The notes under the pieces were generated by a model. That model searched no databases. It saw nothing but the letters and a program-made list of their open reading frames with translations, and was not told the origin of the DNA. Made by a program: the position numbers and the translations under genes. From NCBI RefSeq assembly GCF_900066015.1, contig NZ_LN890656.1:620001-684000 (forward strand): 64,000 bases of DNA, read 5' to 3'. Below, one piece after another: positions 4,169 to 29,627 of the stretch (the first letter of the stretch is position 1; each line of letters begins with the position of its first letter). The stretch comes from Candidatus Promineifilum breve. GTDB lineage: Bacteria > Chloroflexota > Anaerolineae > Promineifilales > Promineifilaceae.

Positions 4169-6586
4169 TTAGCTGGCCGGGGCAAAGGTCATCGTGCCGC
4201 TCTCATAGAGCATATCGATGAGCAGATTGCCGCCTTCCAGCCGGTAGCCCATGGCGTTGGTCAGGCCGCCCAGGAAGATCTGGTCGAACGAACCGGGCGG
4301 GCAGAAGGCCATCGTCGATGCGCCCATCGTCACGGCCAGACCGCCATCGCTGCCGGTGTAGGTGGCCGAGCCGACGTTGCAGTCGGCCTGCCAGTTGGCC
4401 GAGCCGTCGGCGTTGAAGGTGACCGTGTAGCGCGACGGATCATTGATGGTGATCGTGCCGTCGGGCTTGGTGATCGTCGTCAACTGCCAGACCGTGCCGG
4501 CAAACTCACCGGCCACGGCCGGCAGACCGCCGCCCGCTTCGCCCTTGCTCGGCTCGGCGGCCGTGAAACGCATCGTGCCGCTGCTGGCAACCATGTCGAT
4601 GTAGAGATCGCCATCCTGGAAGAAGTAGATGGCCGCGCCGTCCAGACCGGTGCGGAACTGCTGATCCTGCGAATCCACGCAGAAGGCCATCGTGCTGACG
4701 CCGAGGGTGATGTCGATCGCCCCGTCGGGGGCGGCGGTGTAGGTGGCGTTGCCCACGTTACAATCGGCCACGATGCCCGCCGTGCCATCCTCGTTGAAGG
4801 TGATGGTGTAGCGGGTCGGGTCGGCCACGGTGATCATTTCGACCGGGGTCTGGGTGGACACCCACTGCCAGGTGACGCCGGTCAGCGTATCGGCCGCCGG
4901 AGCGGTCTCGGCCGCGCCTGCCGCGCGGAAGCGCAGGGCCGGCCCGTCGGCGGCCATATTGCCGATGATCAAGTCGCCATTCTCAAACTGATACGTGGCG
5001 GTCGCCATCGATTGCAGCCCGGCCAGGAACTCGTTCACCTGCGAATCGGGCGGGCAGGCCATCAGCGTCGAGGGGCCGAGGGTCAGCCCCAGCGCGCCGG
5101 TCTCGTCGCTGGTGTAGTTGCCCAGGACGGTGTTGCAGTCGGCCTTGATATTGGCCGTGCCGTCGTCGTTGAAGGTGATCGTGTAGCGGGTCGGGTCGGC
5201 CACGGCCGTGTTGCCCACCATCGTGATGGATTCGGTCCACTCCCAGGTCGTGCCGGTCAGGGTAGCCCCCGCCGCGCCCGGCTCGGCCGTCTCGCCGCCG
5301 CCCGCGGCACGGAAGTGCATCACGCCACCGTCGGCGGCCGTATTAATCAGCATCAGCCCGCCATCGGCCAACTCATAAGCTCCGGTCGCCATCAAGCCGG
5401 CCAGGAACTCAGTCGCCTGCGAATCTTCGGGGCAGGCCATGGCCGTCGACGCGCCCAGGATGATCGACAGCCCGCCGGTCTCGTCAGCGGTATAGGTGGC
5501 CGTGACGCTATTGCAGTCGGCGGTGACGTTGGCCGTGCCGTCTTCGTTGAAGGTGATGGCGTAGCGGGTCGGGTCGGCGATGGCCGTCGCTCCCAGCATG
5601 GTGACCGTTTCGGTCCACTCCCAGGTCGTGCCGGTCAAGGTGCCGGCCGGCGCGGTCGTCTCGCCCGTGCCCGCGGCGCGGAAGCGCATCACCCCACCGT
5701 CGGCGGCCGTATTGCGCAGCAGCAGATCGCTGCCATCGAACTGATAGGCCCCCATCGTCAGCGAACCCAGCCCGGCCAGGAACACGTCCACCTGCGAATC
5801 GGGCGGGCAGGCCACCAGCGTCGAGGGGCCGAGAGTCAGCGGCAGGGCGCCGGTGTCGTCGCTGGTATAGGTCGCCAGCACGGTGTTGCAATCGGCCTTG
5901 ATATTGGCCGTGCCGTCGTCGTTGAAGGTGATCGTGTAGCGGGTCGGGTCGGCCACGGCCGTCGTGCCCAGCATCGTCGTGAACTCCGTCCACTCCCAGG
6001 TCGTGCCCACCAGGGCCGGGGCCGCCACGGGGGCTTCGGCCGCGCCGCCGGTGCCGGCCGCGCGGAACATCAGCGTGCCGCTGCCGCCGACCAGGGTGAT
6101 GAACAGTTCGCCGTCTTCCACGACGTAGCTCTCCGACGAGCCGAGGGCGTTGACGAACATCTGATCCTGCGTGTCTTCGGGGCAGGCCACCAACGAGGTC
6201 ATGCCCGGTTCGATGGTGATATTGGTCCCATCGGTGAAGAAGTTGGCGATGACCGTGTTACAGTCGGCCACGACGTTGGCGACGTCACCCTCGTTGAAGG
6301 TGATGGTGTAGCGCGCCGGGTCGGTGGCCGTGGTTTGCCCGGCCGCGTCCACCAGCGACACCCACTCCCAGGTGGTTCCCAGCAGGTCGGCCCCCGGCGT
6401 CGCGGCGGTCTCCCCTTCACTTTCGGCCGGGACTTCGGCCGTGGCTTCCACCGGCGCGGCGGTGGCCTCGCCGGCCACGGTGGTGCCGACGCCGGTGGTC
6501 GGCAGCGCCTCTTGCGGCCCCATCGTGTCGCAGGCCGCCAGGGCGAACAGCAACACCAGGCCCAGAATCAAGGCAAGACGTTTCAT
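4169..6586 (-). CDS. Lipoprotein with six tandem META domains
   Basis: An 805-residue exported lipoprotein. The signal peptide MKRLALILGLVLLFALAAC ends in a lipobox whose Cys would be lipidated. After a low-complexity Ala/Thr/Glu linker there are six META modules (HslJ-like fold) of about 115-125 residues each. Every module starts with a GTTWEW or related segment, then DPTRYTITFN, a conserved ADCN and an ACP.DSQ...F..GL stretch. The two Cys residues per module could form a disulphide outside the cell. Modules two and four are almost identical, suggesting recent duplication or conversion. META domains have no settled biochemical function. The gene is followed downstream by a second META lipoprotein gene on the same strand. 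Confidence 0.93.
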   Translation of the reverse strand: MKRLALILGLVLLFALAACDTMGPQEALPTTGVGTTVAGEATAAPVEATAEVPAESEGETAATPGADLLGTTWEWVSLVDAAGQTTATDPARYTITFNEGDVANVVADCNTVIANFFTDGTNITIEPGMTSLVACPEDTQDQMFVNALGSSESYVVEDGELFITLVGGSGTLMFRAAGTGGAAEAPVAAPALVGTTWEWTEFTTMLGTTAVADPTRYTITFNDDGTANIKADCNTVLATYTSDDTGALPLTLGPSTLVACPPDSQVDVFLAGLGSLTMGAYQFDGSDLLLRNTAADGGVMRFRAAGTGETTAPAGTLTGTTWEWTETVTMLGATAIADPTRYAITFNEDGTANVTADCNSVTATYTADETGGLSIILGASTAMACPEDSQATEFLAGLMATGAYELADGGLMLINTAADGGVMHFRAAGGGETAEPGAAGATLTGTTWEWTESITMVGNTAVADPTRYTITFNDDGTANIKADCNTVLGNYTSDETGALGLTLGPSTLMACPPDSQVNEFLAGLQSMATATYQFENGDLIIGNMAADGPALRFRAAGAAETAPAADTLTGVTWQWVSTQTPVEMITVADPTRYTITFNEDGTAGIVADCNVGNATYTAAPDGAIDITLGVSTMAFCVDSQDQQFRTGLDGAAIYFFQDGDLYIDMVASSGTMRFTAAEPSKGEAGGGLPAVAGEFAGTVWQLTTITKPDGTITINDPSRYTVTFNADGSANWQADCNVGSATYTGSDGGLAVTMGASTMAFCPPGSFDQIFLGGLTNAMGYRLEGGNLLIDMLYESGTMTFAPAS

Positions 6587-13011: not shown

Positions 13012-13082
13012 TTTACTTCCTGACGCACCGTGTTATACTGTTTGTGAAAATTCTCACAAACCCCGTTCGCCAATGAGCGGGG
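13012..13082 (+). promoter_or_regulatory. Predicted cbbL promoter with CRP/FNR-type palindrome
   Basis: A promoter-like pair TTTACT (13012-13017) and TATACT (13034-13039) is followed at once by a perfect palindrome TTTGTGA-N6-TCACAAA (13041-13060). This contains the CRP-family consensus TGTGA-N6-TCACA and overlaps the predicted start of transcription, the position expected for repression. A hairpin CCCCG...CGGGG (13061-13082) follows in the leader. The regulator itself is not in the window. Confidence 0.6.
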
Positions 13083-13152
13083 AGTGAGGCGTCTCCGCAT
13101 TGGGCGGCGGCGCGATTGTCGGTTGCAGCACATTCACATGGAGGTCAGACCC

Positions 13153-14544
13153 GTGGCTATTCATAATCCCCTTGCCGGGCCGAAAACGGTCAAAGCGCGG
13201 CCGACGGCCGAGCTGAGCGACGCCTACAAAGCCGGCGTCCGCGCCTATGCTGTCGATTATTACGTACCGGATTATATTCCCCAGGATACCGATCTGCTCT
13301 GTGCCTTTCGGATTCAGCCGCGCGGCGTCGATATGATCGAAGCCGCCGCCGCCGTGGCCGCCGAATCCTCCACCGGAACGTGGACCGAAGTGTGGTCCAA
13401 CCAACTGACCGATATCGATTTCTACAAAGCCAAGGTCTACGCCATCACCGGCGACATCGCCTACATCGCCTACCCGCTCGACCTCTTCGAGGAAAATAGC
13501 GTCGTCAACATCATGTCGTCGATTGTCGGCAACGTCTTCGGCTTCAAGGCCGTGGGCGCGCTGCGGCTGGAGGACATGCGTATCCCCCTGGCCCTGGTGA
13601 AGACCTTCCCCGGCCCGCGTGTCGGCATCTACGACGAGCGGGTGTGGAGCAACAAATGGGATCGGCCGCTCATCGGCGGCACGGTCAAGCCCAAGCTGGG
13701 CCTGTCGCCCAAGGCCTATTCGACCATCATCTACGAATGTCTGTCCGGCGGCCTGGATACGTCCAAGGACGACGAGAACATGAACAGCCAGCCCTTCAGC
13801 CGTTGGCGCGACCGCTTCATGTATGCCCAGGAAGCCGTCGACCGGGCCGCGGCCGAGACGAACGAGTTCAAGGGCCACTGGCACAACGTCACCGCCGGCA
13901 GCACCGAGGAAAGCCTGCGCCGCCTGGAATACGCCTACGAACTGGGCAGCCGCATGGTCATGTTCGACTTCCTGACCGCCGGTTTCGCCGCCTCGGCCGA
14001 CATCTTCAAGCGCGCCGGCGAACTGGACATGATCGTCCATTGCCACCGGGCCATGCACGCCGTCTTCACCCGCCAGGCCAACCACGGCATCGCCATGCGC
14101 GTCGTCGCCAAGTGGCTGCGCCTGACCGGCGGCGATCACCTGCACACCGGCACGGTCGTCGGCAAGCTGGAAGGCTCGTGGAACGACACGCTGGGCATCA
14201 TCGACATCCTGCGCGAGCGGTACGTGAAGGCCAATCTGGAGCACGGCCTCTACTTCGACCAGGACTTCGGCGGGCTGAAGGCCAGTTGGCCGGTGGCCTC
14301 CGGCGGCATCCACGTCCACCACGTGCCCGACCTGTTGAAGATCTACGGCAACGACGCCTTCTTCCTCTTTGGCGGCGGCACCCACGGCCACCCCGACGGC
14401 AGCCGCGCCGGGGCCATCGCCAACCGCGCCGCCGTTGAGGCCGTCAGCGCCGGCCAGACCTTGCAACAGGCCGCCCGCTCCTGCCCCGAACTGCGCAAGT
14501 CGCTGGAGCTATGGGCCGACGTCAAATTCGAGGTTGTGCAATAA
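13153..14544 (+). CDS. cbbL: RuBisCO large subunit, form I lineage, no small subunit (form I'-like)
   Basis: A 463-residue carboxylase that fixes CO2 onto ribulose-1,5-bisphosphate. All active-site motifs are present: ESSTGTW, GNVFGFKA, GTVKPKLGLS, GGLDTSKDDEN (the carbamylated Lys with its Asp and Glu), HCHRAMHAV, HLHTGTVVGKLEG (loop 6 Lys), SGGIH and FGGGTHGHP. KDDEN, loop 6 and the overall length place it in the form I lineage, not form II, III or IV. No rbcS gene lies downstream or elsewhere in the window; prk follows instead. This matches the form I' clade described from Chloroflexota, whose enzymes are octamers of large subunits only. The GTG at 13153 is preferred because GGAGGT sits just upstream; an in-frame ATG at 13138 overlaps that site. 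Confidence 0.96.
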   Translation: MAIHNPLAGPKTVKARPTAELSDAYKAGVRAYAVDYYVPDYIPQDTDLLCAFRIQPRGVDMIEAAAAVAAESSTGTWTEVWSNQLTDIDFYKAKVYAITGDIAYIAYPLDLFEENSVVNIMSSIVGNVFGFKAVGALRLEDMRIPLALVKTFPGPRVGIYDERVWSNKWDRPLIGGTVKPKLGLSPKAYSTIIYECLSGGLDTSKDDENMNSQPFSRWRDRFMYAQEAVDRAAAETNEFKGHWHNVTAGSTEESLRRLEYAYELGSRMVMFDFLTAGFAASADIFKRAGELDMIVHCHRAMHAVFTRQANHGIAMRVVAKWLRLTGGDHLHTGTVVGKLEGSWNDTLGIIDILRERYVKANLEHGLYFDQDFGGLKASWPVASGGIHVHHVPDLLKIYGNDAFFLFGGGTHGHPDGSRAGAIANRAAVEAVSAGQTLQQAARSCPELRKSLELWADVKFEVVQ

Positions 14545-14710
14545 GAAGAGGGAGAATCCACAGATTACACAGATTTCACAGATTGAAGAATAGTGAATAG
14601 TGGATAGTAGACAGTGTATAGACACTGACCACTGTCCACTACCCACTATCTACTATCCACTTTTTCTAATCTGTGAAATCTGTGAAATCTGTGGATTCTC
14701 TTCTCTCCCA
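14545..14710. repeat. Nested hairpin between cbbL and prk
   Basis: The outer hairpin has left arm units CACAGATTA and CACAGATTT (14556-14585) and a complementary right arm (about 14666-14700), flanked by GAGGGAGAATC and GATTCTCTTCTC. Inside it lies a second, unrelated hairpin whose arms are GTGGATAG-type and CTATCCAC-type units (about 14588-14662). The structure ends just before the AGGAGG of prk. Confidence 0.92.
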
Positions 14711-14721
14711 AGGAGGCCACT

Positions 14722-15690
14722 ATGAATCGAAAAACGATCATGCTGGGCGTGGCCGGCGATAGCGCCTCGGGCAAGACGACGATCAGCAAGGGCATCGCCG
14801 AGGCCCTGGGCGCCGAGAACGTGACCGTCATTTGCTGCGACCATTACCACAAATACAACCGCGTCCAGCGTCGCGAGCTGGGCCTCAGCGCCCTGCATCC
14901 CGACTGCAACTACATCGACATCATGGAGCAGCACTTCCGCCTCTTGCGCGAAGGGCAGCCCATCCTGAAACCGACCTATAACCACAACACCGGCGACTTC
15001 GACGGCCCGACCTACGTGCAGCCGACGAAGTACGTCATCATCGAGGGACTGTTGCCCTTCCATTCGCGCCTCATGCGCCTGTGCTTCGACGTGAAGGTCT
15101 ACCTCGACCCGCCGGAGGAGTTGCGCCGGGCGTGGAAGATCAAGCGCGACACCTCCAAGCGCGGCTACACCCATGAGCAGGTGCTAACCTCCCTGCAGGG
15201 CCGGGGCGACGTCTCGCCGCGCTTCATCCACCCGCAGCGGGCCTACGCCGACATGATCGTGCGCTTCTACCCGCCCGACGCGGCCATGGACTCCGGCGAC
15301 AGCCATCTGAACGCCCAACTGGTGTTGCTGCCCACGCTGGCCCACCCCGACCTGAGCGACGTGCTGAGCCACGGCCCCAACGGCCCCACCCATCATCCCG
15401 CCCTGCGCCTCGACCTGGCCCGCTTCGAAGGTAAGCCGGCCGACTTTCTGGAGATCGACGGCTCCGTGGCGCCCGACAAGGCCGAGGAGCTGATGGGCAT
15501 CATCCGCAGCCACTTGCCGCCCAACGCCGGGCTGGACGCGAGCAAACTCGGCCGCTATCTCTACGGGCTGGAAGAGCGGCGCAGCTACCCGCTGGCCCTG
15601 ACCCAACTGTTGATCGCCTACCATCTGGTGCGCACGGCCGACCAGATGGCTTATGCCACCGATCGGGCGGTGGCCCCGGCGGCGAATTGA
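14722..15690 (+). CDS. prk: Phosphoribulokinase
   Basis: A 322-residue cytoplasmic kinase that phosphorylates ribulose 5-phosphate to make the RuBisCO substrate. The P-loop GVAGDSASGKTT lies near residue 10, followed by CDHYHKYNR, HPDCNYIDIMEQH, YNHNTGDF and IEGLLPFH, as in class II (plant and cyanobacterial type) phosphoribulokinases. The redox-sensitive Cys usually found within the P-loop of plant and cyanobacterial enzymes is replaced by Ser, so thioredoxin or CP12 control through that residue is not expected. AGGAGG precedes the ATG. It is separated from cbbL only by a nested repeat and is probably co-transcribed with it. Confidence 0.95.
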   Translation: MNRKTIMLGVAGDSASGKTTISKGIAEALGAENVTVICCDHYHKYNRVQRRELGLSALHPDCNYIDIMEQHFRLLREGQPILKPTYNHNTGDFDGPTYVQPTKYVIIEGLLPFHSRLMRLCFDVKVYLDPPEELRRAWKIKRDTSKRGYTHEQVLTSLQGRGDVSPRFIHPQRAYADMIVRFYPPDAAMDSGDSHLNAQLVLLPTLAHPDLSDVLSHGPNGPTHHPALRLDLARFEGKPADFLEIDGSVAPDKAEELMGIIRSHLPPNAGLDASKLGRYLYGLEERRSYPLALTQLLIAYHLVRTADQMAYATDRAVAPAAN

Positions 15691-15989: not shown

Positions 15990-17903
15990 ATGAAACCGCG
16001 CATTGTCGGATTGTGTCTGCTGGCCCTTATGCTGCTCTTGGTCGGCATCATGCCGGCCGTCATGGCCCAGGGCGAGCCGAGCAACCCTCCCCCGCCGACG
16101 CCCGCCTTGCCCGCCCCGGCCGCCACGCCCCGGCCCCACCAGGGGCAGCCGGGCCTGGTGCCCTCCTCGCCCAATGATTTCACCGTCTCCGGGAAAGTGA
16201 CGGACGTTTTTAACCAACCCGTCACGGATGTTTGGTTCGACGTCTATAACACCAGCACCTGGGATTACTACACGACCTCAACCAATGCCAGCGGCAATTA
16301 TTCGCTCTCCCTGCCCGCCGGGGATTACGATATCGATCCCTATAAGTCCGGCTGGTTATTCAAGCCTGAGATGATCCATGTCACCGTCGGCCCGAACAAG
16401 CCCAACAAGAACTTCCAGGCCGTCGACGCGAATTGGCAGGTGGCCTGGTATAACGCGATCGAAGACGGCTACACCAACGAGGGCAGCAAGACCGCCAACT
16501 ATGGTTCGGCTTCCATTCTGCGCGTCAAGAACGCGGCGGCCGACATGAATGCCTACGTCAAATTCGACGTATATGACCTCGTGCAGGAAACGGAACCCGG
16601 CACCTGCTTCGCCACCGGCGATGGCTGGCTGATGACCTACGTCAAAGAACCCGGCCCCGACGGCGGCGGCGTCTACCCCGTCGGCAACAACTGGAACGAG
16701 ACGACCCTCAACTGGAATAATGCGCCGGCGATCACCGGCGACCCAATCGGCCAGTTCGGGGCCGAGACCGACGAAAGCAACGCCTGGGCGCGCCTATCGA
16801 AGCCGGCGACCGGTGACGGCGTCTACAGCTTCGCCATCCGGAACAATTCGTCTGACTCGGTCGATTACAGCAGTTGGGAGGGCGGCGATTATCCGTGGCT
16901 CGTCGTCGACTACCGGGTCGAGTATAAGGATTTCCTCTCGGCCAATATTTCCTATGACGACTGGGCCGGGTTAGCTCCCTTCACAGTTCAGTTTTTAGAC
17001 CGATCGTATGGCTGCGCCACGTCCTGGCACTGGGACTTCGGCGACGGCGCCACAAGTACTCAGCCGAACCCCAGCCACACCTATTCGTCCCCCGGCTATT
17101 ACGGAGTTAGCCTGACCGTGTCCAATGGTACCTCTAGCGTTAACGCGGGCGACGGCATCTATGTCGTCGAACCTGTCACGCAGTTCTTCATTAGCCCCGC
17201 CACCAATGCCACAATCGGCGGCATCGCCGCGCAGGCGGCCGACGTCCTGCTCTATGACCGGCCGTCCAACACCTGGACGATGGTCTATGACGGCTCGGCC
17301 CACAACACCCTGAAAAATATCAGCGCTGTGGATTTTGACGGCACAGACCTGCTACTGACTTTCAGCGCTAATCAGGCCATTCCCGGTCTGGGAACGGCGA
17401 CGCCGTATGACGTCGTCCGCTTCACGCCCGACGACCCCTATACCTACCCGCTTGGCTCCGGCAGTTTTTCATGGCAGTTCCAGGGCAGGCCAAAGGGGTT
17501 GACAACGGCCGGCGAGAAGATCGATGCTTATGCCTACTCCTGGGCAGAATTGTTATCCACGTCTGGAGCGGCGTCGTTGCCGACCGACCCAATCATCAAG
17601 CGGGCTGACGAAGACTTGTTCAGTTGGTATGCCTGGGATAACAGTTGGTTAACCTGGCCACTGGACGGCTCGACGATCACCGGTCTGGCCGCCGAAGACA
17701 TAAACGGCGTCGCGTACGATTGGACCGATGATTTGTACATCACCATCCTCGGCACCTTCAATCTGGGCGGGATCTCCGGCGACGGCAAAAGTATCGTCCT
17801 GCTAGAGGCTACCGGCGGCGGCTACACGCCATCGCTCGTGCCCTGGCTGGCCCCCGGCGCGACCTTCCCCTCCACCATCGACGCCATCGAGGTGGTGCGC
17901 TAG
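15990..17903 (+). CDS. Secreted DNRLRE/PKD protein with shared C-terminal domain
   Basis: A 637-residue exported protein. A signal peptide (residues 1-27, ending VMAQ) and a proline-rich linker are followed by a carboxypeptidase-regulatory-like beta-sandwich (FTVSGKVTDVFNQPVTDVWF, about 62-145). Next is a DNRLRE-like domain (GSKTANYGSASILRVKN...AYVKFDVYDL, about 150-310) and a PKD domain (about 313-392, with WHWDFGDGATSTQPNPSHTY). Residues about 395-637 are the C-terminal repeat domain shared with three neighbours, with VYDGSAHNTL and LDGSTITGLAAEDINGV. No catalytic domain is recognisable, so a binding or structural surface role is likely. AAGGAG lies upstream of the ATG. A predicted CRP-like site precedes its promoter. 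Confidence 0.88.
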   Translation: MKPRIVGLCLLALMLLLVGIMPAVMAQGEPSNPPPPTPALPAPAATPRPHQGQPGLVPSSPNDFTVSGKVTDVFNQPVTDVWFDVYNTSTWDYYTTSTNASGNYSLSLPAGDYDIDPYKSGWLFKPEMIHVTVGPNKPNKNFQAVDANWQVAWYNAIEDGYTNEGSKTANYGSASILRVKNAAADMNAYVKFDVYDLVQETEPGTCFATGDGWLMTYVKEPGPDGGGVYPVGNNWNETTLNWNNAPAITGDPIGQFGAETDESNAWARLSKPATGDGVYSFAIRNNSSDSVDYSSWEGGDYPWLVVDYRVEYKDFLSANISYDDWAGLAPFTVQFLDRSYGCATSWHWDFGDGATSTQPNPSHTYSSPGYYGVSLTVSNGTSSVNAGDGIYVVEPVTQFFISPATNATIGGIAAQAADVLLYDRPSNTWTMVYDGSAHNTLKNISAVDFDGTDLLLTFSANQAIPGLGTATPYDVVRFTPDDPYTYPLGSGSFSWQFQGRPKGLTTAGEKIDAYAYSWAELLSTSGAASLPTDPIIKRADEDLFSWYAWDNSWLTWPLDGSTITGLAAEDINGVAYDWTDDLYITILGTFNLGGISGDGKSIVLLEATGGGYTPSLVPWLAPGATFPSTIDAIEVVR

Positions 17904-18299: not shown

Positions 18300-18397
18300 C
18301 CCCATCAGAGCGCGGAACCAGCGGCGCAGATTCACCCTTGCCCCCCTGCCCCCCCGCTCCCCTGCTCTTCCAAAATCCACCTCACAGGAGACCACCC

Positions 18398-19348
18398 ATG
18401 ATCGTCACCACCGCCCAGCTATTCCAGGAAGCCTACGGCCGCTACGCCGTCGGGGCCTACAACATCAACAACATGGAGCAAGCCCTCGGCCTCTTCCAGG
18501 GCCACATCGAGGCCCAGGCCCCGTTCATCATCCAGCTCAGCAAGGGGGCGCGCAAATACGCCAACGCCCGCGTGCTGGAGGCCATCATCCGCGCCGTGGA
18601 GAGCGAATACCCCGAAGCCATCTTCGCCGTCCACCTCGACCACGGCGACGAGCAGACCTGCTACGACTGCATCGACTCCGGCTTCTATAGCTCGGTGATG
18701 ATCGACGCCTCCCACGAGACGTTCGCCGAGAACGTCGCCATCACCCGCCGCGTCGTGGAGCGCGCCCACGCCAAAGGCATCAGCGTCGAATCGGAACTGG
18801 GCATGCTCGGCGGCGTGGAGGAAGACATCAAGGTTGACGAGAAGCACGCCATGCTGACCGACCCCGACGAGGCCCAGGCGTTCGTGGAGGCCAGCGGCTG
18901 CGACAGTCTGGCCGTCGCCATCGGCACCAGCCACGGGGCCTACAAGTTCGCCGGCTCCCAGGGGCTACACTTCGACCGCATCGAGGCCATCCAGGCCGCC
19001 CTGCCCGGCTTCCCGCTGGTCATGCACGGCAGCAGCAGCGTGCCCCAATCCGAGGTACAGCGCATCAACGCCGCCGGCGGCGCGCTGAACCCCAACGCCA
19101 AGGGGGTGGACGACAGCCAATTCGGCCGCGCCGCCAAACTGGGCGTGACCAAGGTCAACATCGACACCGACGGCCGCCTCGTCTGGACGCGCGTCCACCG
19201 CGAATTCTTCCGCGACCACCCCGAGGGCTTCGACTTCCGCACCCCCGGCAAGGAGTACGTCAAGGCTTACGCCGACTTCATCGTCGATAAGAGCCGCAAG
19301 CTGGGTTCGGCCGGGCACTTGGAAGAGGTTCGCGCCGCAGTGATGTAG
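18398..19348 (+). CDS. fba: Class II fructose-bisphosphate aldolase
   Basis: A 316-residue zinc-dependent aldolase that interconverts fructose 1,6-bisphosphate with glyceraldehyde 3-phosphate and dihydroxyacetone phosphate; in the Calvin cycle it also makes sedoheptulose bisphosphate. Metal and catalytic motifs are visible: HLDHGDEQT (catalytic Asp and Zn His), ELGMLGGVEED, GTSHGAYKF (Zn His), MHGSSSVP (Zn His) and GVTKVNIDTDGR. The sequence is closest to the class IIA/IIB type used by autotrophs. The start at 18398 follows ACAGGAG; a longer frame upstream is low-complexity proline. It is the third Calvin-cycle gene in the region, separated from prk by a secreted-protein gene, so it has its own promoter. 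Confidence 0.94.
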   Translation: MIVTTAQLFQEAYGRYAVGAYNINNMEQALGLFQGHIEAQAPFIIQLSKGARKYANARVLEAIIRAVESEYPEAIFAVHLDHGDEQTCYDCIDSGFYSSVMIDASHETFAENVAITRRVVERAHAKGISVESELGMLGGVEEDIKVDEKHAMLTDPDEAQAFVEASGCDSLAVAIGTSHGAYKFAGSQGLHFDRIEAIQAALPGFPLVMHGSSSVPQSEVQRINAAGGALNPNAKGVDDSQFGRAAKLGVTKVNIDTDGRLVWTRVHREFFRDHPEGFDFRTPGKEYVKAYADFIVDKSRKLGSAGHLEEVRAAVM

Positions 19349-19599: not shown

Positions 19600-20700
19600 A
19601 TGTCAGGTAGATACCGTCTTAAAAGTCAAGTACCCAGAGCAGGCGAAAGGGCAAAAGCCGGGTCAAAGGGGCGGCCGGACTTAAGGACGCCGAAGGCTAG
19701 ATGGAGCAGCTTGCGCATGGCGGCGACGACGATGACCATTTTGGGTTTGCCGGCGCGCTGCAGGCGCTGCTGCATGGCCTGGATGACAGGATTGTGGCGC
19801 AGGGCAACCAGCGCGGGCATGTACAACTGCGCGCGCAGGACAGCATTGCCCTTGCGGGAGGTGTGGCCGCGCCCATAGACCGATGTGCCGGATTGGCAAA
19901 CGGACGGAGCCAGGCCGGCATGGGCCACCAGTTGCCTGGGGTTGTCGAAGGCGTGGATGTTGGGCAACTCGACCATCAAGCGGACGGCGGTTAACAGACC
20001 GATGCCGGGGATGGAACGCAGCAGTTGGCAGGTGTGGCGCAGAGCGGGATGGGCCTGCAGATGGGCCTCAATGGCCTTTTGCAACGCCACGATCTGGGCC
20101 TCGAGCACGGCCAGGATGGCTTGCAGGCTGGCCTGAACGATGGGCGGATGAGAACCGGCGGTCAGGCGATTGCGCTCCTGCTGATGCATGTGTTGCACGT
20201 CGGCCACGCGCCGCACGAGGGCGCACAGCTCCTGCTGTTCCGCCGTGGGCGGCGTCCAGAGGGCAGGGCGCTGGGTGCGGCCAAAGTCCAGGATGAGGGC
20301 GGCATCCAGCCGGTCGGTCTTGGCCCGCCGGAGCTTGGACGCACCATAGGCTTTGATGCGCGCCGGATTGACGACCGAAACGGCGTGGCCTTGTTGGCTC
20401 AGGTAGTGGGCCAGGGCCTCACCGTATCGCCCGGTGGCCTCCTGGACCGCCCACACTCGGCCGGCCCCGTTTTTGTCCAGCCAGCGGCTCAGCGCTCGAA
20501 AGTCGGCCGGGTCGTTGTCAAAGCCGCGGCTGTTCTGCCGTGGCCCGACCTGTAACACGGCCTCGAACGTGGCCTTGGCGATGTCGATGCCCAGAAAGGA
20601 ATAGGTGTCTGACATGGTTGACGCTCCTGTTGGTTTGCTCGGATTGGCTTGACAGTCCGGCCCGGCCCTTCTGGTGAACACCCTTGTTCATTCAGGCTCT
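19600..20700 (-). mobile_element. IS110-family insertion sequence, ends not defined
   Basis: The region contains one IS110-type transposase. IS110 elements lack long terminal inverted repeats and usually carry a structured bridge RNA in a non-coding end. I could not define the ends: flanking host repeats end near 19575 and a gene remnant begins near 20708, so the coordinates are approximate. Confidence 0.5.
19626..20615 (-). CDS. IS110-family transposase
   Basis: A 329-residue recombinase. The N-terminal RuvC-like DEDD domain shows FLGIDIAKATFEA (first Asp), VQEATGRYGEAL (Glu) and AKTDRLDAALI (two Asp). The C-terminal transposase_20 domain has LRSIPGIGLLTAVRLMVEL, the GLAPSVCQSGTS segment with the catalytic Ser region, and RKGNAVLRAQLYMPAL. 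The length agrees with full-length family members, and no frameshift is seen, so it may be active. The start at 20615 (MSDTYSFLGID) is chosen because a longer frame reads into non-coding sequence. It sits between fba and a stretch of gene remnants. Confidence 0.95.
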   Translation of the reverse strand: MSDTYSFLGIDIAKATFEAVLQVGPRQNSRGFDNDPADFRALSRWLDKNGAGRVWAVQEATGRYGEALAHYLSQQGHAVSVVNPARIKAYGASKLRRAKTDRLDAALILDFGRTQRPALWTPPTAEQQELCALVRRVADVQHMHQQERNRLTAGSHPPIVQASLQAILAVLEAQIVALQKAIEAHLQAHPALRHTCQLLRSIPGIGLLTAVRLMVELPNIHAFDNPRQLVAHAGLAPSVCQSGTSVYGRGHTSRKGNAVLRAQLYMPALVALRHNPVIQAMQQRLQRAGKPKMVIVVAAMRKLLHLAFGVLKSGRPFDPAFALSPALGT

Positions 20701-27918: not shown

Positions 27919-28821
27919 ATGATGATGGATTTTACAACCGGCAGCTTTTCCTCAACCCTGTATCAGGGCGATTGTTTCGACGTATTGAGGACCTTGCCGG
28001 ACAACTCGGTTGACTTAATCGTCACCTCACCTCCCTACGCCGATCAACGGAAAAGCACCTACGGCGGCATCCACCCGGACCACTACGTTGAATGGTTTAC
28101 CCCAACCGCTGTAGAGCTACTACGAGTCCTCAAGCCCACCGGAACATTCATCCTCAATATCAAGGAAAAAGTTGTCAATGGCGAACGCCATACCTACGTG
28201 CTCCAGTTGATCTTGCGCATGCGCGAAGTTGGTTGGCTGTGGACCGAGGAGTTCATGTGGCACAAAAAGAACTCCCATCCCGGCAAGTGGCCCAATCGCT
28301 TTCGGGATAACTGGGAAAGGCTGCTACAGTTTAACAAGGAAAAGCAGTTTGCCATGTACCAGGATGCGGTCATGGTGCCGATGGGTAAATGGGCGGAGTC
28401 TCGGCTGCGAAACCTGAGTGAAACGGATAAGCGCCGTGATAACTCAAGAGTGGGCAGTGGCTTTGGCAAGAACGTGTCCAAGTGGGTGGGGCGCGATATG
28501 GCTTACCCCAGCAATGTCCTCCACATGGCCACCGAGACGAGTAACAAAAACCATAGTGCCGCGTTTCCCCTGGAACTTCCCAGTTGGTTCATCAAGCTCT
28601 TTACAGGTGCGGGCGACCTTGTGCTTGACCCATTCATGGGGCAGGGTACGAGCTGTGTCGCGGCGACCCAACTTCAACGTAGCTCAATCGGCATTGAGCT
28701 GAATGAGGAGTATTATGGCCTCGCCTGCGCGAATGTTGACAACGCCTTCAAGCAATCGCCCACTTACGGCCAGCCTAGCCTGTTCAGCGTCTTGAATGAA
28801 TCGCAAGGCTTGACGGAATGA
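27919..28821 (+). CDS. Type II DNA methyltransferase (beta class)
   Basis: A 300-residue SAM-dependent DNA methyltransferase. Motif IV TSPPY lies near residue 37 and motif I DPFMGQGTS near residue 234, the order of the beta class; SPPY is most common in N4-cytosine enzymes, but N6-adenine cannot be excluded. Three ATG codons in a row (27919, 27922, 27925) leave the exact start open. Its stop overlaps the next ATG by four bases, so it forms one transcript with the restriction gene. Codon use is visibly less GC-biased than in neighbours, in keeping with horizontal acquisition. It protects the host from its partner endonuclease. Confidence 0.93.
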   Translation: MMMDFTTGSFSSTLYQGDCFDVLRTLPDNSVDLIVTSPPYADQRKSTYGGIHPDHYVEWFTPTAVELLRVLKPTGTFILNIKEKVVNGERHTYVLQLILRMREVGWLWTEEFMWHKKNSHPGKWPNRFRDNWERLLQFNKEKQFAMYQDAVMVPMGKWAESRLRNLSETDKRRDNSRVGSGFGKNVSKWVGRDMAYPSNVLHMATETSNKNHSAAFPLELPSWFIKLFTGAGDLVLDPFMGQGTSCVAATQLQRSSIGIELNEEYYGLACANVDNAFKQSPTYGQPSLFSVLNESQGLTE

Positions 28822-29627
28822 TACCCTCACTGCTCGATTACGATGCTCTCCATGAGTATGTCACTCAGCAAGTCATAGAGCCATATTACAGCAAGCGCAT
28901 CGAAACCTTGCGCCGTCTCAGCCTAATCAACAATCGGGTAAGACAAAAGGCTCTCCTAAACCGCAAGAACCCCTACCTGTTCAGGGCCAAGAATATACAA
29001 ACATCCGGCGAGTTCGTGCAGTATGCGCTGGATGGCTTTCTCTCATCATCAGAGGAAACCCTGTTTGGAAATCTACTGGAGGGCTTGGCTATTCACATAT
29101 GCGAGCAGGTCTTTGGCGGCCATAAAGCGCCAGCCAGAGAAATGAAAAGCGTCGATCTCATTTTCACACGGGACGAGACACGTTTCATTGTCGGGATCAA
29201 ATCAGGCCCTAATTGGGGCAACCAGGACCAGAAAGACAGAATGGCCGGCAACTTTAAGACAGCCAGGGCCATTCTCAGGGCTAAAGGGGAAACCTTGCCA
29301 ATCGTTGCCGTTAACGGCTGTATGTACGGCGTTGACCAAGTCCCGTGGAAACCCAACAGCCATGACCCCGAACTTAGCTACTATAAATATTGCGGCCAAC
29401 TGTTCTGGGAGTTTATTTCGGGCGACGAGATGTTGTATCTCAAATTGATCAGACCACTGGGCGAGGAAGCTAGGACGAGGAGCGATGCGTTCAACAAGCT
29501 ATACCACGCCAAGATAAATGAGATGACCACCGAGTTCAGCAACAATTTCCTGGGTGAGGACAATCAGATAGATTGGAATAAGCTCATTCACTTTGTCTCG
29601 TCCAGTCCAAAACGAATGGCGGATTGA
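28818..29627 (+). CDS. PmeII-family type II restriction endonuclease
   Basis: A 269-residue protein that by position and sequence is the endonuclease partner of the preceding methyltransferase. The segment NRKNPYLFRAKNIQTSGEFV and SSEETLFGNLLEGLAIHIC are features I associate with PmeII-like type II enzymes. A PD-(D/E)xK-like core is visible as SVDLIFTRDETRFIVGIKSG, with Asp and the Ile-Lys pair. It overlaps the methyltransferase by ATGA. The gene is complete, so the system may be active. Recognition sequence unknown. Base use is AT-richer than its surroundings. Confidence 0.85.
   Translation: MIPSLLDYDALHEYVTQQVIEPYYSKRIETLRRLSLINNRVRQKALLNRKNPYLFRAKNIQTSGEFVQYALDGFLSSSEETLFGNLLEGLAIHICEQVFGGHKAPAREMKSVDLIFTRDETRFIVGIKSGPNWGNQDQKDRMAGNFKTARAILRAKGETLPIVAVNGCMYGVDQVPWKPNSHDPELSYYKYCGQLFWEFISGDEMLYLKLIRPLGEEARTRSDAFNKLYHAKINEMTTEFSNNFLGEDNQIDWNKLIHFVSSSPKRMAD

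What the first reader, a model, noticed from the sequence alone, without database searches (positions are those of the whole stretch)
13012..15690. RuBisCO large subunit of form I lineage without a small subunit, paired with a P-loop-Cys-free PRK
All catalytic motifs of form I are intact, yet no rbcS exists in the window and prk follows cbbL directly. This matches the form I' clade known from Chloroflexota, which assembles without small subunits. PRK also lacks the redox Cys of the P-loop, so the usual CP12/thioredoxin switch seems absent. This makes the pair an early-looking carbon-fixation module.
Basis: partly seen in the sequence, partly recalled or inferred. Interest (0 to 1): 0.75.

Follow-up and report, generated by a model that had tools for sequence, protein, structure and literature searches.

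The report
Published small-subunit-free RuBisCO, Promineifilum breve
The gene is the very RuBisCO, from a filamentous sewage-sludge bacterium, whose crystal structure defined the small-subunit-free 'form I-prime' type, so it is real but already published; its partner kinase turns out to have been exchanged among relatives and is not a special ancient companion.

Summary
An intact RuBisCO large-subunit gene (GTG 13153-14544) is followed by prk (14722-15690). No rbcS exists in the window or anywhere in the 5.03 Mb, 99.96%-complete genome, and this is its only RuBisCO. The protein is identical over 462 of 462 aligned residues to PDB 6URA, the form I' enzyme of Ca. Promineofilum breve (Banda et al. 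2020). The form I' reading is therefore right, and it is the published type specimen rather than a new case.

The second half of the reading needs correction. The PRK does lack the P-loop redox Cys and the C-terminal Cys pair, and the genome has no CP12. But the same P-loop holds in 81 of 82 relatives examined, 37 of them from loci that carry rbcS, so it does not mark an early module. RbcL of 14 form I' loci forms one clade (97/95). Their PRKs do not: the window's group is sister to a KSB1 rbcL-rbcS-prk operon, while L086-L090 sit among PRKs from rbcS-bearing loci. One PRK clade is rejected (p-AU 1e-6 or lower). So prk was exchanged at least once while the two-gene order persisted. In relatives the operon continues with Calvin-cycle genes. 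Already known; low interest.

The parts
13153..14544 (+). cbbL/rbcL, form I' RuBisCO large subunit, 463 aa, GTG start
   Evidence: 100% identical over 462 aa to PDB 6URA chain A; PF00016 355 bits, PF02788 140 bits; catalytic motifs intact
14545..14721 (+). 177-bp spacer between rbcL and prk
   Evidence: Read directly from the ORF coordinates; no rbcS here or elsewhere in the genome
14722..15690 (+). prk, phosphoribulokinase, 322 aa, without the P-loop redox Cys and without the C-terminal Cys pair (Cys only at 38, 39, 62, 121)
   Evidence: NF005655 373 bits over cut-off; best PDB match 9qko/9qkp 'cyanobacteria specific phosphoribulokinase', 353 bits, against canonical PRK 6gve, 174 bits; Cys positions
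18338..19348 (+). class II fructose-bisphosphate aldolase, probable member of the same Calvin-cycle neighbourhood
   Evidence: PF01116 276 bits; close homologues lie downstream of rbcL-prk in form I' locus L067 and downstream of rbcL-rbcS-prk in L072

Best explanation
This is the rbcL-prk pair of Ca. Promineofilum (Promineifilum) breve or a strain with the identical enzyme. RbcL assembles into an L8 octamer without small subunits and carboxylates RuBP. The adjacent PRK makes RuBP from ribulose 5-phosphate and ATP. The nearby class II aldolase, plus FBPase, GlpX and transketolase elsewhere in the genome, regenerate the pentose, giving a Calvin-Benson cycle in a non-phototrophic or facultative bacterium. 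The PRK cannot form the classical P-loop disulfide and there is no CP12, so the cyanobacterial/plant redox switch is absent. The prk gene has an evolutionary history partly separate from its rbcL: form I' operons carry at least two PRK lineages. Shown here: sequence identity, gene order, absence of rbcS and CP12, the trees. Taken from publications: L8 assembly and kinetics of the identical protein. Inferred: PRK activity and flux in the organism.
For: RbcL is identical to 6URA. 6URA is the P. breve form I' structure, and the P. breve enzyme was purified as L8 with Sc/o about 36 (PMC9833052; PMC10135865). There is no rbcS in this genome, nor in 13 form I' relatives, whereas 26 of 29 RuBisCO-bearing Chloroflexota genomes have one. 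All 14 form I' loci have prk next to rbcL. Form I' RbcLs form one clade, 100/99 and 97/95. Downstream genes in relatives: tkt, rpe, fba (L067), tkt, rpe, HAD phosphatase (L070), rpe, class I fba (L088), rpe (L071). FBPase, transketolase and GlpX are present in the genome. CP12 is absent with a positive cyanobacterial control. PRK polyphyly: p-AU 1.4e-6 and 2.5e-63.
Against: PRK activity is assigned by family and neighbourhood only. In P. breve no genes for oxidising inorganic energy sources were reported (PMC6753630), so autotrophic use of the cycle is uncertain. Whether form I' lost RbcS or never had it is not decided by these trees; the longer branches (L016/L033, L083) make rooting uncertain.
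Confidence: 0.93

Rival explanations
1. The RuBisCO is ordinary form I whose rbcS lies elsewhere in the genome or was missed in assembly.
For: One Chloroflexota genome with form I RbcL (G288) has rbcS about 11 kb away from rbcL rather than next to it, so displacement does happen.
Against: No PF00101 match in a 99.96%-complete genome; RbcL is identical to a protein crystallised and purified as L8; 13 relatives in the same RbcL clade also lack rbcS genome-wide.
Confidence: 0.01
2. The rbcL-prk pair is an ancient unit inherited together, so the redox-Cys-free PRK is a primitive trait of the form I' lineage (the first reader's module idea).
For: Gene order rbcL-prk holds in all 14 form I' loci, and rbcS-less loci outside form I' (L016, L033, L083, L084) have it too; 9 of the 13 form I' PRKs form one clade, 100/98.
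Against: The other form I' PRKs (L086-L090) nest among PRKs of rbcS-bearing loci, 99/99, and one clade is rejected. The Cys-free P-loop is present in 81 of 82 PRKs examined, 37 of them from rbcS-bearing loci.
Confidence: 0.1
3. The kinase is a uridine kinase or another sugar kinase of the PF00485 family and not a PRK.
For: PF00485 covers both; one of its closest PDB relatives (9qkn) is labelled 'Uridine kinase'.
Against: NF005655 phosphoribulokinase 373 bits over cut-off, while uridine kinase models stay far below theirs; the genome has another, uridine-kinase-like paralogue (31% identical, L001); adjacency to rbcL, tkt, rpe and fba in relatives.
Confidence: 0.03

Closest known systems
Form I' RuBisCO of Ca. 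Promineofilum breve (PDB 6URA; Banda et al. 2020, Nature Plants)
   Same: Identical protein over 462 aligned residues; no RbcS
   Different: No difference found in the protein
'Cyanobacteria specific phosphoribulokinase' (PDB 9qko, 9qkp; related 9qkn)
   Same: Closest solved PRK by sequence, aligned over residues 1-304
   Different: Window PRK forms a separate branch with form I' operon partners and KSB1 L072
Canonical cyanobacterial/plant PRK (6gve, 6kev; Argonema L111 here)
   Same: Same PF00485 family and the retained VIC motif holding the second redox Cys position
   Different: No P-loop Cys, no C-terminal CGTKLTC pair, no CP12 in the genome
Form I rbcL-rbcS-prk-tkt-fba-glpX operon of KSB1 bacterium (L072)
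   Same: PRK is the nearest outgroup of the window's PRK clade; same tkt/fba neighbourhood
   Different: Has rbcS and a form I RbcL

Membership tests
Form I' RuBisCO | RbcL in the clade sister to form I, distinct from it | tested here: met
   Identical to 6URA; clade support 100/99 and 97/95
Form I' RuBisCO | No small-subunit gene in the genome | tested here: met
   0 PF00101 matches, control positive; same in 13 relatives
Form I' RuBisCO | L8 assembly, active without RbcS | not testable with these tools
   Published for the identical protein (PMC10135865, PMC9833052)
Form I' RuBisCO | Catalytic residues intact | tested here: met
   Motifs listed
Form I RuBisCO proper | RbcL inside the form I clade, rbcS present | tested here: not met
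Form I-alpha / I'' | RbcL in one of those clades | tested here: inconclusive
   No named reference sequences of these forms were at hand; identity to 6URA makes membership moot for the window
Phosphoribulokinase | Score over curated PRK model, above uridine kinase models | tested here: met
   NF005655 373 bits against cut-off 236; udk models 96-107 bits, below their cut-offs
Thioredoxin/CP12-regulated PRK | P-loop Cys with its partner Cys, C-terminal Cys pair, CP12 in genome | tested here: not met
   Only the VIC Cys is retained; CP12 absent

The most novel reading that the evidence does not exclude
Form I' RuBisCO operons keep the order rbcL-prk but have replaced the kinase at least once with a PRK from lineages that pair with small-subunit-bearing form I RuBisCO, so the two genes keep a shared place but not a shared history. 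I found no statement of this in the papers I could search, but the main form I' papers are not held.
Probability: 0.8. Interest if true: 0.35.

Novelty: already known. Interest (0 to 1): 0.2.

Why it matters
Form I' is the reference point for how RuBisCO worked before the small subunit. This check confirms that the published enzyme sits in a genome with no small subunit at all. It also warns against reading the neighbouring PRK as a relic: the lack of the redox Cys is general in its clade, and the kinase is an exchangeable part of the operon.

Tried and rejected
Hidden rbcS: whole-genome search empty. Second RuBisCO: none. Alternative PRK elsewhere: two other PF00485 matches, a uridine-kinase-like paralogue and a weak one of 64 bits. 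Paper behind the 9qko structures: not in the library. Papers on PRK and Chloroflexota form I: nothing on PRK exchange seen in the hits listed (most were judged by title and abstract only). The Banda 2020 paper and the paper at DOI 10.1038/ismej.2016.14 (which I took, from memory, to be the P. breve genome paper) are not held. The form of the rbcS-less L016/L033 and L083 RbcLs could not be named: their best PDB matches are other RuBisCOs (7qsv and similar).

Full report
Observation. The window holds an intact RuBisCO large-subunit gene and, 177 bp downstream on the same strand, a phosphoribulokinase gene. Catalytic motifs are intact, and Pfam and NCBIfam agree on both genes.

Identity. Residues 2-463 of the protein are identical to PDB 6URA chain A. 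Papers in the library give 6URA as the form I' RuBisCO of Promineofilum breve (PMC9833052), describe the form I' enzyme of that organism as an L8 octamer that assembles without small subunits (PMC10135865), and use 6URA as the form I' reference (PMC9802188). The finding is therefore the published enzyme. By sequence match the organism is Ca. Promineofilum breve, now Promineifilum breve (Chloroflexota, Ardenticatenia), or a strain with the identical protein.

Small subunit. The genome (5,033,966 bases, 3 contigs, 99.96% complete) has no RbcS match and only this RuBisCO. The control in the same search was positive. Of 29 Chloroflexota genomes with a form I-like RbcL, 26 carry rbcS; the three without are the window's genome, G008 and G179. 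Thirteen relatives of the window's operon also lack rbcS genome-wide, though several are metagenome bins of unstated completeness.

Tree. In a 64-row RbcL tree the window, L065-L071, L086-L090 and L109 form one clade (100/99), apart from the form I clade (99/100), whose members carry rbcS next to rbcL or, in G288, about 11 kb away. A smaller tree gives 97/95 for the form I' branch. Two Chloroflexota (L016, L033) and a Myxococcota sequence (L083) are further rbcS-less RbcLs on separate branches; I could not assign them to named forms.

Operon. All 14 form I' loci have prk directly after rbcL. In relatives the operon continues: tkt-rpe-fba in L067, tkt-rpe-HAD phosphatase in L070, rpe-class I aldolase in L088, rpe in L071. 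In the window a CBM96/PKD protein (15990-17903) lies between prk and a class II aldolase (18338-19348) whose close homologues follow the operon in L067 and in the KSB1 locus L072. The genome also has FBPase, transketolase and two GlpX proteins. This fits a Calvin-Benson cycle; a review of activated-sludge Chloroflexi reports the genes for that cycle but no inorganic energy source (PMC6753630; the passage lies in its Ardenticatenia section).

PRK. It scores as phosphoribulokinase. Its nearest solved relatives are the 'cyanobacteria specific' PRKs 9qko/9qkp (353 bits), well ahead of canonical PRK 6gve (174 bits). The P-loop reads GDSASGKT against GDSGCGKS in the cyanobacterial PRK of Argonema (L111). 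Of the four redox Cys of that PRK only the one in VIC is retained; the C-terminal CGTKLTC pair is missing. CP12 is absent from this genome and 14 others, and present in Argonema and Synechococcus. So the classical switch is absent. However, 81 of 82 PRKs with a readable P-loop lack the Cys, 37 of them from rbcS-bearing loci. The sample was drawn around the window's PRK, so the fraction is not a census.

Partner exchange. If rbcL and prk were an inherited unit, the form I' PRKs should be one clade. They are not. Nine, including the window's, form a clade (100/98) whose sister is the PRK of the KSB1 rbcL-rbcS-prk operon. The PRKs of L086-L090 fall among those of rbcS-bearing Chloroflexota and Acidobacteriota loci (99/99). 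Holding the form I' PRKs together costs 117-119 log-likelihood units, p-AU 1.4e-6 in the 61-row quick tree and 2.5e-63 in the 42-row careful tree. The group was defined by the RbcL tree before the PRK tree was built. The RbcLs of L086-L090 are themselves not one clade (p-AU 0.0135), so more than one exchange is possible. The direction of exchange is not determined.

Conclusion. The RuBisCO half of the reading is right but already published. The PRK half is right as an observation, but it does not indicate an early module.

Noticed in passing
L086-L090 against window 14722-15690: Form I' operons carry at least two PRK lineages; L086-L090 have PRKs nested among those of rbcS-bearing form I loci.
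   Followed up: yes
L016 (G008), L033 (G179), L083, L084: rbcL-prk pairs without rbcS outside the form I' clade (L084 rbcL is partial, not in the tree); form not assigned.
   Followed up: partly
L072:5297-13068: KSB1 operon HAD phosphatase-rbcL-rbcS-prk-tkt-fba-glpX, whose PRK is the nearest relative of the window's PRK clade.
   Followed up: partly
window 27919-29627: DNA methylase (PF01555) followed by an EcoO109I-type restriction endonuclease (PF14511): a type II restriction-modification pair.
   Followed up: no
window 19626-20681 (-): Looks like an IS110-type transposase close to the aldolase gene; family not scanned.
   Followed up: no
window 4169-6586 (-): Protein with six META-domain stretches.
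   Followed up: no
G144 (same genus as the window's genome): No RuBisCO large subunit found (97% complete), so the trait is patchy within the genus.
   Followed up: no
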